Under the pieces are notes generated by a model. That model made no database searches. It was not told the DNA's origin and worked only from the letters and a program-made list of their open reading frames with translations. A program made the position numbers and the translations under genes. Shown here piece by piece: positions 2,100-27,600 of a stretch of DNA of 56,486 nucleotides. Position 1 is the stretch's first letter; each line of letters opens with the position of its first letter. Source of the stretch: Candidatus Microgenomates bacterium (lineage in GTDB: Bacteria; Patescibacteriota; Microgenomatia; Daviesbacterales; UBA10151); the NCBI GenBank assembly GCA_016182045.1, contig JACOYE010000012.1, forward strand, positions 1 through 56,486. The letters run 5' to 3'.

Positions 2100-3026
2100 T
2101 CAGATTAATTCCAGGAGTCTGTCCAAACCAAAGGAAAAACCAACAGCAGGGATGTCTTTCTTGGCCCTTCGACTTCGCTCAGGGTAAATAAACATGCCTA
2201 TTAAGTTATCATATCTGCCACCGGCACCAACAGATAAGGAGGTTGGATTTTGATCTAGTTTGAGCTCAAAAATAGCGCCGGTGTAATAATCCAAACCGCG
2301 AGCTAGTGTTGGGTCGAATTTGAAATCAATACCCATCTCTAAAGAATATTTTTCTTTTAAGATATTAAATAATTGCTCAAGATTTTCAGTGGGTTTTTGG
2401 GATCTGATTTCATTAACTGTCTCCTTAGCCTTATCCGGTGATAGTCCACCACTAACTAACTCACTTATCACATCTTCCTCGCCGATTTTATTGATTTTAT
2501 CTATAGCTCTGACTGCTTCAGAAGGAAGTGAGGCAAAATTGGCTCTGTCATTAATGAGCATAACTGCATCTTCAAAGCCTAAATCTTTCATGCATTTAAT
2601 GGTTACTGCCACAATCAAGGCATCTTCTTTGGGATCAGATGAACCCACGCTATCAAAATCAAATTGGGTGAATTCACGCCACCTGCCTTTTTGGGGATTT
2701 TCACCGCGGAAGACCTGGCCAATTTGGTATCTTCTGAATGGTAGGGGAGGGTTGTAGGCTGCCACATACCGTGCAAGCGGAACAGTTAAGTCATAGCGTA
2801 ATGCCAGTTTTCTGCCGCCTCTATCTGTGAACTCATAAATTAACCTTTCTTCCTCCCCGTATTTACCCTTTAGCGTATCTGCAAACTCTATGGTAGGGGT
2901 TTCAATGGGGACAAAGCCATAGCCTTCCAGGACGCTGACAATAATATTTATTGCCTCACGTCTTTTCTTGGCCATATCGGGTTTTATATCCCTAAACCCC
3001 TTTGGTGTTGGCGGTGCTTTAAGCAT
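2100..3026 (-). CDS. hisS: histidyl-tRNA synthetase-like protein lacking the anticodon-binding domain
   Basis: A class II synthetase core: motif 1 region (TPKGFRDIKPDM), motif 2 (FRRYQIGQVFRGENPQKGRWREFTQFDFD), the histidine-specific LARGLDYYTGAIFE and motif 3 (AVGFSFGLDRLLELI). The protein stops right after motif 3, at about 308 residues, where family members usually run past 400 with an anticodon-binding domain; the next gene begins 21 bases later, so no domain fits. It could be a minimal HisRS or a HisZ-like paralogue; no his operon is near. The ATG at 3026 is preferred over 3044 because TATGAT just upstream looks like a -10 box. A 20-bp repeat is inserted in frame near the C-terminus. Confidence 0.85.
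   Translation of the reverse strand: MLKAPPTPKGFRDIKPDMAKKRREAINIIVSVLEGYGFVPIETPTIEFADTLKGKYGEEERLIYEFTDRGGRKLALRYDLTVPLARYVAAYNPPLPFRRYQIGQVFRGENPQKGRWREFTQFDFDSVGSSDPKEDALIVAVTIKCMKDLGFEDAVMLINDRANFASLPSEAVRAIDKINKIGEEDVISELVSGGLSPDKAKETVNEIRSQKPTENLEQLFNILKEKYSLEMGIDFKFDPTLARGLDYYTGAIFELKLDQNPTSLSVGAGGRYDNLIGMFIYPERSRRAKKDIPAVGFSFGLDRLLELI
2165..2184. repeat. 20-bp repeat CCCTTCGACTTCGCTCAGGG inside hisS
   Basis: A copy of the 20-base element with complementary tips CCCT and AGGG. On the hisS strand it reads PERSRR, placed between GGRYDNLIG and PAVGFSFGLDRLL, where HisRS proteins normally have a short loop. Identical over 20 bases to the copy in yebC, and related to copies in pilD and two intergenic sites. 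Confidence 0.85.
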
Positions 3027-3088
3027 ACTGTTTAATAATATCATAGCAGTGTACAGACTGCATTTTCCTATGGGTTACCGCAGGCCTG

Positions 3089-3132
3089 CCCTGAGCGAAC
3101 CTGTGGTGATCGTAGCCGAACCAGTCGAAGGG
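3089..3132. repeat. diverged intergenic copy of the CCCTGAGCGAA...TCGAAGGG element
   Basis: Intergenic DNA between hisS and the next gene. The outer halves CCCTGAGCGAA and GTCGAAGGG match the 20-bp element found in hisS and yebC, separated here by about 24 extra bases. The ends are still complementary. This looks like an element that has itself received an insertion or an internal duplication. Confidence 0.6.
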
Positions 3133-4578: not shown

Positions 4579-5322
4579 TTACTTTTTCTTCCCAGAAGGT
4601 GTGGCTGATTTGGTGGTAACTTGAGCAGAGGGGGTGGCCACCTTTTTGAGTTTTATGATTCCGCCTTGGGAAATAACATAAACAAATCTTGCCACATATA
4701 TTTCATTTTTATTTTTGCTACCTACCACGATCACAAAATCGTTAAGCTTAATCTTTATATCAGGTTTGAAATTGACTGACACCGCCACATTTTTTAGTTC
4801 CCTGGTTTTTAAGGTAACAAGACTATCGGAGATAGAGATAACTTGGCCCCAAAGGTAAGTTGGTAGTTGGTCCGCCAGCTGGTGGATGGTAGTTGGTAGT
4901 AAGATAACCTTTTTGGCTGTTAAGACTCCTGTTTCATCAATGTCACCCAAAGCGGCCACAAAATCTTCTTCTGCCAAAGTTTTCAAAGACAATTTCTTGT
5001 TTTTGACATTACCTTCATAAATTGTATCTTGATTTAGAGTGACAATCTTTGGCCCGCCTCTGGTGGCTAAAGTTAAAGAAGTTTCAGATTTGGCTTTTAA
5101 GTTCCCTATGTAGGCCTTATTTTGCAATTTCCTGTTAACCTCAAGTTTTAATTTGGCAGCCTTAGAAGCAATCTCTTTTTTCAGCTCCTCTAATTTAGCC
5201 TTGATGTTAGCTGAGGGAGTGGAATCAGCAGCATGAGCAGTGGACAGGGTACAGGTTACAGTGAACAGGAAAGATAATATTAAACTGTAACCTAAAACCT
5301 GAAACCTGTAACATTTTCTCAT
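4579..5322 (-). CDS. secreted protein with DUF5666-like beta domain
   Basis: 247 residues: a signal peptide (ILSFLFTVTCTLSTAHA), a Lys-rich helical stretch, then beta-rich segments of the kind found in DUF5666/OB-like secreted proteins (TLATRGGPKIVTLNQDT, LVTLKTRELKNVAV). The C-terminus is basic. Its ATG overlaps the stop of the upstream gene (ATGA), so the two are translationally coupled. Two micro-repeats lie within it: one forms the signal-peptide core and is shared with yebC, the other (4871-4886) matches the EF-P palindrome. Function unknown. Confidence 0.7.
   Translation of the reverse strand: MRKCYRFQVLGYSLILSFLFTVTCTLSTAHAADSTPSANIKAKLEELKKEIASKAAKLKLEVNRKLQNKAYIGNLKAKSETSLTLATRGGPKIVTLNQDTIYEGNVKNKKLSLKTLAEEDFVAALGDIDETGVLTAKKVILLPTTIHQLADQLPTYLWGQVISISDSLVTLKTRELKNVAVSVNFKPDIKIKLNDFVIVVGSKNKNEIYVARFVYVISQGGIIKLKKVATPSAQVTTKSATPSGKKK
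4871..4886. repeat. near-palindrome TCCGCCAGCTGGTGGA
   Basis: Differs by one base from TCCGCCAGCTGGCGGA, the core of the palindrome in efp at 11744-11761. It is flanked by TAGTTGG-type direct repeats and encodes part of IHQLADQLP in the secreted protein. Confidence 0.65.
5242..5270. repeat. 29-bp repeat shared with yebC
   Basis: GGACAGGGTACAGGTTACAG plus nine further bases match yebC 25075-25103 at 27 of 29 positions. Here it is read on the minus strand and makes the hydrophobic core of the signal peptide (FLFTVTCTLS). Confidence 0.85.
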
Positions 5323-24642: not shown

Positions 24643-25425
24643 ATGTCAGGGCATTCTAAATGGTCAACTATTAAAAGACAAAAAGGGGCGGCGGATATAA
24701 GACGCGGCCAGACTTTTACTAAGGTAGCCAATGCCATAACTATAGCTGTAAAACAGGGGGGTTCTGGGGATGCTGACTCTAACCCCAGGCTTAGAGCTGC
24801 CTTAGAGGATGCAAAAGCTGTTAATATGCCTAAAGACAATATCCAAAGAGCTATTAACCGTGGTTTGGGTAAAGTGGCTGGACAAGCCTTGGAGGAGGTA
24901 GTTTTTGAGGGGTTTGGGCCCGCTAAAGTGGCCTTTTTAGCAGAGGGTGTGACTGACAATAGATTAAGAACGCTTCAGGAAGTGAAGAATTTGTTTGAAA
25001 GATCGGGTGGATCTTTGGCCGGATCGGGGAGTGTGGTATATATGTTTGATAGAAAAGGGGAAATAAGAATTAGGGGACAGGGTACAGGTAACAGTGAGCA
25101 GGAGATGTTAGAGCTAATAGATCTTGGTGCTGAGGATGTGGAGGATTATATGGAAGAACCCTTCGACTTCGCTCAGGGTAAAAATATACAAAAGTATTTG
25201 GTATCTGTAGAGAGCTCAGAGTTAAATACTATGAGTAATAAAATTACTCAAGCAGGATACGAGGTAGAGCAGGCTGAAATAGTCTTTAAACCAAACACTT
25301 TAGTGGAAATAAAGGATCCTGAAGTAGCCAAAAAAGTGTTAGAATTTGCAGAGAAATTAGAGGACTTAGATGACATCCAAAAAGTATATGCCAATTTTGA
25401 CATTCCCGACAATTTATTGGGATGA
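24643..25425 (+). CDS. yebC: YebC/PmpR family protein
   Basis: 260 residues from the ATG at 24643 (SGHSKWSTIKRQKGAADIRRG is the family N-terminus). Family domains 1-3 are intact. YebC proteins act as DNA-binding regulators and, in recent work, as helpers of translation at proline stretches. Two non-family stretches occur in domain 3: RGQGTGNSEQ (29-bp repeat) and PFDFAQGK (20-bp element), the latter a loop between LGAEDVEDY and KYLVSVES. A TAGAAT box ends 7 bases before the start. ruvC follows after 6 bases. Confidence 0.93.
   Translation: MSGHSKWSTIKRQKGAADIRRGQTFTKVANAITIAVKQGGSGDADSNPRLRAALEDAKAVNMPKDNIQRAINRGLGKVAGQALEEVVFEGFGPAKVAFLAEGVTDNRLRTLQEVKNLFERSGGSLAGSGSVVYMFDRKGEIRIRGQGTGNSEQEMLELIDLGAEDVEDYMEEPFDFAQGKNIQKYLVSVESSELNTMSNKITQAGYEVEQAEIVFKPNTLVEIKDPEVAKKVLEFAEKLEDLDDIQKVYANFDIPDNLLG
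25075..25103. repeat. 29-bp repeat shared with the secreted protein at 5242-5270
   Basis: 27 of 29 bases match the copy at 5242-5270. Here it is read on the opposite strand relative to the gene and encodes GQGTGNSEQE, a stretch absent from YebC proteins. Confidence 0.85.
25159..25178. repeat. 20-bp repeat CCCTTCGACTTCGCTCAGGG inside yebC
   Basis: Identical to the hisS copy but on the opposite strand relative to the gene, encoding PFDFAQG. It is a clean in-frame addition in a variable loop. Confidence 0.85.
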
Positions 25426-26756: not shown

Positions 26757-27600
26757 TTTGGGAATTATACACAAATTGTCAATTTGGCTTGATGTAACAA
26801 GCTAAAGTGGAGGAGTGAGCTAAAAAAAAGCGACAAGCGCCTGCGGTGAGCGAAGTCGAACCGTGAAAAAACTATGAGTTATTTTGTGAAAAAAATAAAT
26901 GATGCAGTATGATATATTTACCAGGCACAAATGTGGAAAACTATGGGGTCTTTCGTGCTCTGGCAATTTATGTGGCAGTAGTCTGATATGTTTGCCAAAA
27001 TAACCCGAAGCATCCTTAGAGTGGAGGTATCTATCCCTCATGGAAATTATCAGCAATTGTCATCCTAAACAGGAGATCAACTCCAGTTTTTACTGGCGAT
27101 TTCTCAAGTAACCGCAATTCCTCCCTCTTATCAGGCTTCCCTTTATTCTCTATGTCGGACAATGTATCTTATGCGATGTTAAGGAAGTGGGTTGCCTGGA
27201 GGAGACCCCGGATCTAGACCATGCGGATTATTAGCAAAAAATGATCGTATTTTAGTTTCTATTTTTGTGTATCTATTTATGTTTATTTCCCACCAAAATT
27301 TTTATTGTTCCCATACTACCAACTACTAACTACATACTACTAACTATTTAGGGCTTCCTGACAGGCTAATCTGGATGATGGTAGATAGCGCCTCTCCCCT
27401 AACAAGCCGTTTTTGGGGCCTTGCAGAGCCTCGTATTTGCAGGCTCATGTCATTATGGAATTAACTCTGTTTAATTACAATAAGCTTTAAAATCTAACTG
27501 CTTACAATTTACAATTTTTTTATTTAATTTTATATAGCATATGTTAGAGAAAACCATTTTATCTATTTTATCTATTGTCGCACAATATTTATTCCCAAGC
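26757..27600. other. long non-coding stretch with hairpins and micro-repeats
   Basis: About 840 bases with no credible ORF. It contains a 20-bp repeat variant (26844-26863), a hairpin CCAGGCAC / GTGC-T-CTGG (26921-26963), an adjacent TGGCAA / TTGCCA pair (26961-26997), CCAGTTTTTACTGG near 27090, GAGCCT / AGGCTC near 27430, and TACTAACTAC-type short repeats near 27320. No tRNA, tmRNA, RNase P or SRP RNA signature was found. It may hold an unrecognised structured RNA or decayed DNA. Confidence 0.5.
26844..26863. repeat. 20-bp element variant CGGTGAGCGAAGTCGAACCG
   Basis: Same core GAGCGAAGTCGAA as the hisS and yebC copies, but with tips CGGT and ACCG, still complementary. Intergenic. Confidence 0.75.

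What the first reader, a model, noticed from the sequence alone, without database searches (positions are those of the whole stretch)
25159..25178. 20-bp CCCTTCGACTTCGCTCAGGG element with co-varying tips in hisS, yebC and pilD
Five copies share the core TTCGACTTCGCTC. The outer four bases differ but stay complementary: CCCT/AGGG (hisS 2165, yebC 25159), TCCT/AGGA (pilD 55545), CGGT/ACCG (intergenic 26844), with a diverged copy at 3089-3132. Compensating changes suggest that a hairpin, not the exact sequence, is preserved. The in-gene copies read PERSRR, PFDFAQG and SFDFAQD depending on strand and frame.
Basis: partly seen in the sequence, partly recalled or inferred. Interest (0 to 1): 0.7.

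Follow-up and report, generated by a model that had tools for sequence, protein, structure and literature searches.

The report
A 24-letter mobile DNA hairpin
The repeated 20-letter palindrome is one part of a 24-letter hairpin that has inserted itself, as a precise unit, into genes, spacers and even other copies of itself across many bacterial phyla; no enzyme that moves it could be linked to it, which makes it one of the smallest candidate mobile DNA units known.

Summary
The core TTCGACTTCGCTC occurs 4 times in the window (0.02 expected) and 11 times in the genome; the related pattern occurs 577 times in 97 of 138 same-class genomes. Read on the GAGCG strand, the element is a 4-nt tag, a 4-bp stem of variable sequence, and a near-invariant core GAGCGNAGYCGA. 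Exactly four stem pairs co-vary (115-122 of 131 copies paired; shuffles never reach this) and pairing stops sharply beyond them. The 'diverged copy' at 3089-3132 is really a nested pair: removing exactly 24 nt restores the canonical 20-mer. The same nesting occurs in a dozen contexts, always 24 nt, always in the loop, in the same orientation wherever tested, with no target duplication. The hisS and yebC copies are net 24-nt (8-codon) insertions absent from sister genes. So a hairpin is preserved, but so is its sequence core, and the thing is a mobile unit of the REP kind, not a transcript signal. It fails defining REP features: no GTAG/CGTC tag here, no RAYT transposase beside it (49 loci), mostly single copies, more than half in genes. 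Most likely a single-strand-DNA element moved in trans by an unidentified Y1/HUH nuclease. New variant of a known kind.

The parts
2165..2188 (-). 24-nt unit in hisS (tag TTTA + CCCT-GAGCGAAGTCGA-AGGG on the minus strand); encodes most of the extra octapeptide IYPERSRR
   Evidence: net 8-residue insertion absent from 29 aligned HisS homologues
25159..25182 (-). 24-nt unit in yebC (tag TTTA); encodes PFDFAQGK on the plus strand
   Evidence: exactly 24 nt CCCTTCGACTTCGCTCAGGGTAAA between GAAGAA and AATATACAA; absent in sister genes such as L270 and L268
55545..55568 (-). 24-nt unit in the prepilin peptidase (pilD) gene (tag CTTG, stem TCCT/AGGA); encodes SFDFAQDK
   Evidence: extra residues in a variable loop, boundaries less certain than in hisS and yebC
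26840..26863 (+). 24-nt unit between genes (tag CCTG, stem CGGT/ACCG)
3085..3132 (+). outer 24-nt unit (tag CCTG + CCCTGAGCGAA ... GTCGAAGGG), interrupted in its loop
   Evidence: removal of 24 nt restores CCCTGAGCGAAGTCGAAGGG
3100..3123 (+). inner 24-nt unit (tag CCTG, stem TGGT/ACCA, core GATCGTAGCCGA) inserted in the loop of the outer one

Best explanation
The repeat is a 24-nt non-autonomous mobile DNA element: a 4-nt unpaired tag (mostly TTTA, CTTG, CCTG) followed by a 20-nt imperfect hairpin with a free 4-bp stem and a fixed head GAGCGNAGYCGA. It inserts as one exact unit, without target duplication, in genes (in frame, since 24 is a multiple of 3 and five of its six reading frames are open), in spacers and in the loop of earlier copies. 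Shown: unit length, polarity of nesting, stem co-variation, head conservation, breadth. Inferred: the GAGCG strand folds while single-stranded (head as two G.A pairs, a G-C pair and a GNA loop with a bulged pyrimidine), and a Y1/HUH single-strand nuclease acting in trans cuts at the tag and joins it to a new single-stranded site, a hairpin loop being a ready one. The enzyme is not identified.
For: Nesting: in all fetched DNA, removing 24 nt restores an exact outer element (intact core, 4/4 stem) in 12 contexts, and no other length from 18 to 34 does so; longer cases (35-38) are tandem or doubly nested. With looser scoring all 15 junctions fall at positions 8-11 of the outer 20-mer, that is in the loop. 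A scan of IMG/VR with both gaps free (0-30 each) gave the 24-nt length in about 10 of 29 distinct matches, the commonest length. The same scan for the opposite orientation gave 4 stretches, none of that length, and loci fetched earlier show 4 same-orientation 24-nt nestings and no opposite one. Inner and outer stems differ in most cases, so this is insertion, not slippage. Genes: hisS and yebC hold net 8-codon insertions missing from sisters; a sister genus has a 24-nt relative with a different loop at the same yebC site. Stem co-variation: (18 of 44 distinct stem types fully paired, 1.6 expected). Loop: N and Y are the free core positions; among 6-nt loops found with free letters, 204 of 215 keep the X0-X4 pair, and the yebC sister swaps C-G for T-A there. 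Known parallels: TnpAREP needs hairpin irregularities and a 5' tetranucleotide, acts on one strand only, and selects cut sites through the tag (PMC8266576).
Against: No Y1/RAYT gene is tied to it: of 49 Y1 loci in the class, 30 carry their own different flanking palindromes and none has this element within 300 bp; only 1 of about 119 repeat-bearing contigs has a Y1 gene nearby, 1.5 kb away. Genomes with 3-8 copies and no detected Y1 gene exist, and genomes with 4-10 Y1 genes and no copy; the count correlation (rho 0.38) is not corrected for kinship. Standard DNA folding gives only the 4-bp stem (-0.3 to -2.1 kcal/mol, no better than shuffles), because it does not credit G.A pairs or GNA loops. 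The tsaD insertion is net 21, not 24 nt, so 24 nt in genes may partly reflect selection for frame. No live movement was observed.
Confidence: 0.6

Rival explanations
1. Ordinary REP/REPIN remnants: once moved in pairs by a dedicated RAYT that has since been lost; today's single copies are dead relics.
For: Same general build (tag plus imperfect hairpin) as REPs; Y1 genes are common in the class (108 of 138 genomes); Di Nocera 2013 proposed extinction of the CGTC transposase (PMC3733652); REP singlets are held to be defunct REPINs (PMC3116915).
Against: No RAYT flanked by it was found among 49 loci here or near about 119 contigs from other phyla. Own-genome copies are almost all single, and nested insertions show the single hairpin moving as the unit.
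Confidence: 0.2
2. Structural signal kept by selection in RNA or DNA (terminator, mRNA stabiliser, protein-binding site).
For: Strong compensating stem changes; mild shortage inside ORFs (42 of 76 against 85% of random positions).
Against: More than half of copies lie inside coding sequence, 32 antisense and 10 sense, in all five open frames; the site in yebC, hisS or tsaD is empty or filled by unrelated repeats in relatives; weak predicted fold.
Confidence: 0.07
3. Stem pairing is kept not by selection or by the mover but by template switching during replication, which copies one arm onto the other.
For: Would also give compensating changes; quasi-palindrome correction is established knowledge.
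Against: Pairing stops sharply after four pairs while the mismatched G.A positions of the head stay uncorrected; it does not explain exact 24-nt nested insertions with a different stem. It can coexist with the best explanation.
Confidence: 0.1
4. Assembly or binning artefact in a metagenome-assembled genome.
For: The genome is a draft in 24 contigs; many related records are MAGs.
Against: The element is also in isolates (Dyadobacter, Pedobacter, Sphingomonas, Flavobacterium), and in-frame copies sit inside intact conserved genes flanked by lineage-specific sequence.
Confidence: 0.02

Closest known systems
CGTC-tagged REPs (Di Nocera et al. 2013, PMC3733652), including Neisseria dRS3 and Rickettsia RPE-4/RPE-6
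   Same: Short hairpin with an unpaired 5' tag, in many phyla, sometimes inside genes, no dedicated transposase found beside them.
   Different: Their stems are 8-9 bp with 4-5 nt loops and a CGTC/TGTC tag; here a 4-bp free stem, a fixed 12-nt head and TTTA/CTTG/CCTG tags in this class (GTCA is the commonest tag in the wider set). They are mainly head-to-head dimers.
GTAG REPs and REPINs with RAYT/TnpAREP
   Same: Tag plus irregular hairpin, strand asymmetry, presumed single-strand DNA movement.
   Different: No GTAG, no flanking RAYT, mostly single copies, over half inside genes; the single 24-nt unit appears to be what moves.
Rickettsia palindromic elements (RPE)
   Same: In-frame insertion in unrelated conserved genes.
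   Different: RPE-1 type elements are over 100 bp (own knowledge); this one is 24 nt and spread over many phyla.
IS200/IS605 ends and their non-autonomous derivatives
   Same: Hairpin plus 5' tetranucleotide, no target duplication, oriented insertion.
   Different: No second end, no internal cargo; a single 24-nt hairpin, and no partner transposase identified.

Membership tests
REP elements (GTAG type) | GTAG (GT[AG]G) tetranucleotide 5' of the hairpin | tested here: not met
   131 copies: TTTA 16, CTTG 12, CCTG 10, TATT 10; GTAG not among the 25 commonest tags
REP elements (GTAG type) | Cognate RAYT gene flanked by the same repeat | tested here: not met
   0 of 49 Y1 loci with the repeat within 300 bp; 30 of 49 share other words of 13 nt or more on both sides
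REP elements (GTAG type) | Extragenic location | tested here: not met
   42 of 76 copies inside ORFs
REP elements (GTAG type) | Hairpin with an irregular stem, recognised on one strand | tested here: inconclusive
   Sequence pattern fits and nesting is oriented; binding and cleavage not testable here
REPIN | Inverted doublet as the unit | tested here: not met
   Own-genome copies are single; the nearest separate pair lies about 440 bp apart. Doublets do occur in other phyla, for example Pseudanabaena L092 and Sphingomonas L141
CGTC REPs | CGTC/TGTC/CCTC tag | tested here: not met
   Not in this class; GTCA is the commonest tag (16 of 92) in the all-bacteria set, so kinship is possible
CGTC REPs | 8-9 bp stem with a 4-5 nt loop | tested here: not met
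   Pairing ends after 4 bp plus the irregular 12-nt head
CGTC REPs | No transposase beside it | tested here: met
IS200/IS605-type single-strand transposition | Exact insertion without target duplication, oriented | tested here: met
   12 strict nested cases and the yebC/hisS sites
IS200/IS605-type single-strand transposition | Cleavage by a Y1 HUH enzyme | not testable with these tools
   Needs biochemistry

The most novel reading that the evidence does not exclude
A free-standing 24-nt DNA hairpin is a complete, still mobile transposable unit across most bacterial phyla, uses hairpin loops (including its own) as insertion targets, and is moved by an enzyme not encoded beside any copy.
Probability: 0.4. 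Interest if true: 0.78.

Novelty: new variant of a known kind. Interest (0 to 1): 0.6.

Why it matters
It gives a sequence-only demonstration of unit length for a REP-like element: the nested copies show that a single hairpin with its 4-nt tag, not an inverted pair, is what inserts. That bears directly on two open questions: whether REP singlets can move, and what mobilises REP-like repeats that lack a RAYT. In-frame octapeptides such as PFDFAQG, PERSRR, LSEVEG, PSTSLR and LRLRSG in conserved proteins of many draft genomes get a simple explanation.

Tried and rejected
Idea that one of the genome's three RAYTs is the cognate: rejected, each has other flanking palindromes. Diverged-copy reading of 3089-3132: rejected. 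Thermodynamic folding as support: no help, z near 0. Paper searches for the DNA core and the peptides found nothing. Comparison with solved structures for TsaD, TatD and an ATP-citrate-lyase-like protein did not fix insertion boundaries. TatD and pilD loops are too variable for boundaries. A looser nested scan gave extra counts at 25-27 nt, which vanish under strict scoring.

Full report
OBSERVATION. The core TTCGACTTCGCTC is present four times in the window against 0.02 expected, eleven times in the 905-kb genome and never in the reversed control. With two free letters (TTCGRCTNCGCTC) it occurs 577 times in 97 of 138 genomes of the same class, and the reversed pattern only a handful of times. 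In a collection that large many 14-mer matches are expected by chance, but 92 of 139 have three paired flanking positions, where chance gives about 2. The small genome and the Woesebacteria/Curtissbacteria hits suggest that the window is from Patescibacteria; this is inference.

ANATOMY. Read on the other strand the element is tag(4)-NNNN-GAGCGNAGYCGA-N'N'N'N'. In 131 copies of 18 genomes the four stem positions pair in 122, 116, 119 and 115 copies (shuffled means 93, 72, 60, 55; 0 of 5000 shuffles reach the observed value), including C-G in place of the usual closing T-A; the fifth position is at chance. Among 44 distinct stem types 18 are fully paired, against 1.6 on average and 7 at most when the arms are shuffled. 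In the head only the sixth base is free and the ninth is a pyrimidine. The search patterns fixed the other head letters, but when the loop is left free (GAG-X-CGA between paired stems) the same loops come back: 215 six-letter loops against 1 for the reversed control, and 10 against 0 in DNA not selected for the repeat. A head of two G.A mismatches, G-C, C-G, a GNA loop and one bulged Y explains which letters are free; a related loop with T-A in place of C-G (GAGTACCATCGA) sits at the same yebC site in a sister genus. Standard DNA folding does not credit these features and gives only the 4-bp stem, no better than shuffles; the fine structure is therefore an inference.

UNIT LENGTH. The 'diverged copy' at 3089-3132 is a canonical copy with a complete second unit in its loop: remove CCTGTGGTGATCGTAGCCGAACCA and CCCTGAGCGAAGTCGAAGGG remains. 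The same occurs elsewhere in the genome (locus L230), in a Margulisbacteria contig (L132) and in several viral-collection contigs, one doubly nested. Under strict scoring, removal lengths from 18 to 34 nt restore an outer copy only at 24 (12 contexts); junctions lie at positions 8-11 of the outer 20-mer, the loop, with an ambiguity of 1-2 nt. Only same-orientation nesting is seen at 24 nt. In most cases the inner and outer stems differ, so slippage cannot be the cause. In genes, hisS gains IYPERSRR and yebC gains PFDFAQGK, each exactly eight codons missing in close relatives; tsaD shows net seven. The insertion sites in yebC and tsaD are hot spots hit by other repeats in other genomes, which fits selection for tolerant surface loops.

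PLACEMENT. Of 76 copies with enough context 42 lie inside ORFs (random positions 85%), 32 with the GAGCG strand antisense to the gene, using all five stop-free frames. So genes are avoided only mildly, unlike classical extragenic REPs.

WHO MOVES IT. The genome has three Y1 (PF01797) genes, and Y1 genes occur in 108 of 138 relatives. Of 49 Y1 loci, 30 share a word of at least 13 nt between their two flanks (1% of mismatched controls), that is, they have their own palindromes, but none has this element within 300 bp; the same holds for other phyla. Copy number and Y1 number correlate weakly (rho 0.38, not corrected for kinship), with clear exceptions both ways. Either one of these enzymes acts in trans, or the mover is something else. 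Insertion without duplication, fixed polarity, a 5' tetranucleotide and a folded single strand are the marks of IS200/IS605-like single-strand chemistry (PMC8266576), hence my preference.

AGAINST KNOWN KINDS. It works like a REP. As a member it fails the GTAG tag, the RAYT neighbour, the extragenic location and the REPIN doublet, and relative to CGTC REPs it fails the tag and stem (PMC3733652), though it shares with these the missing transposase; the GTCA tags seen in other phyla hint at kinship. Bertels and Rainey regard REP singlets as defunct REPINs (PMC3116915); the nested copies here argue that a single hairpin can be the moving unit.

LIMITS. Copies within a genome are related, so counts are not independent; some loci (L167) hold arrays. 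Viral-collection contigs may include host flanks. Movement was inferred from sequence, not seen.

Noticed in passing
L028:2725-3408 (-); L029:2766-3434 (-); L029:9285-9935 (-): Three RAYT-like Y1 transposase genes in the window's genome, each flanked by its own palindrome; the first carries its own repeat (GGAGTCTCC) in frame inside the gene, as described for TnpAREP subclass 2.4 (PMC6006769).
   Followed up: partly
window 25121-25220 (yebC) and loci L265, L273, L275, L276, L283, L285: One loop of YebC holds different repeat-coded peptides in at least six relatives (PFDGTQGK, FDFAQDFADAQEK, FDLAQDFTEAQD, DGILPTGRQ, NDSPSYNK): an insertion hot spot shared by unrelated repeat families. TsaD shows the same.
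   Followed up: partly
window 2100-3044 (-): HisS is only 314 aa and ends after the catalytic domain, as in about a dozen relatives (loci L294-L305); most other relatives have 400 aa or more.
   Followed up: no
window 5239-5270 and 25072-25103: Second repeat, AGGGGACAGGGTACAGGTAACAGTGAGCAGGA, 91% alike, one copy inside yebC just upstream of the element.
   Followed up: no
L295 (hisS of a sister genus): Another palindrome (CCTGCCTGCCGGCAGGCAGG, peptide LPAGRQ) is inserted a few codons downstream of the site used in the window's hisS.
   Followed up: no
L019:431-3019 (-): A purL-like gene in the same genome carries several repeat-coded peptides in a row (RHSERSEESL, NPSASLRAG, DSSLIARNDK).
   Followed up: no
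L167: A Flavobacteriaceae contig with an array of more than ten copies in alternating orientation.
   Followed up: no
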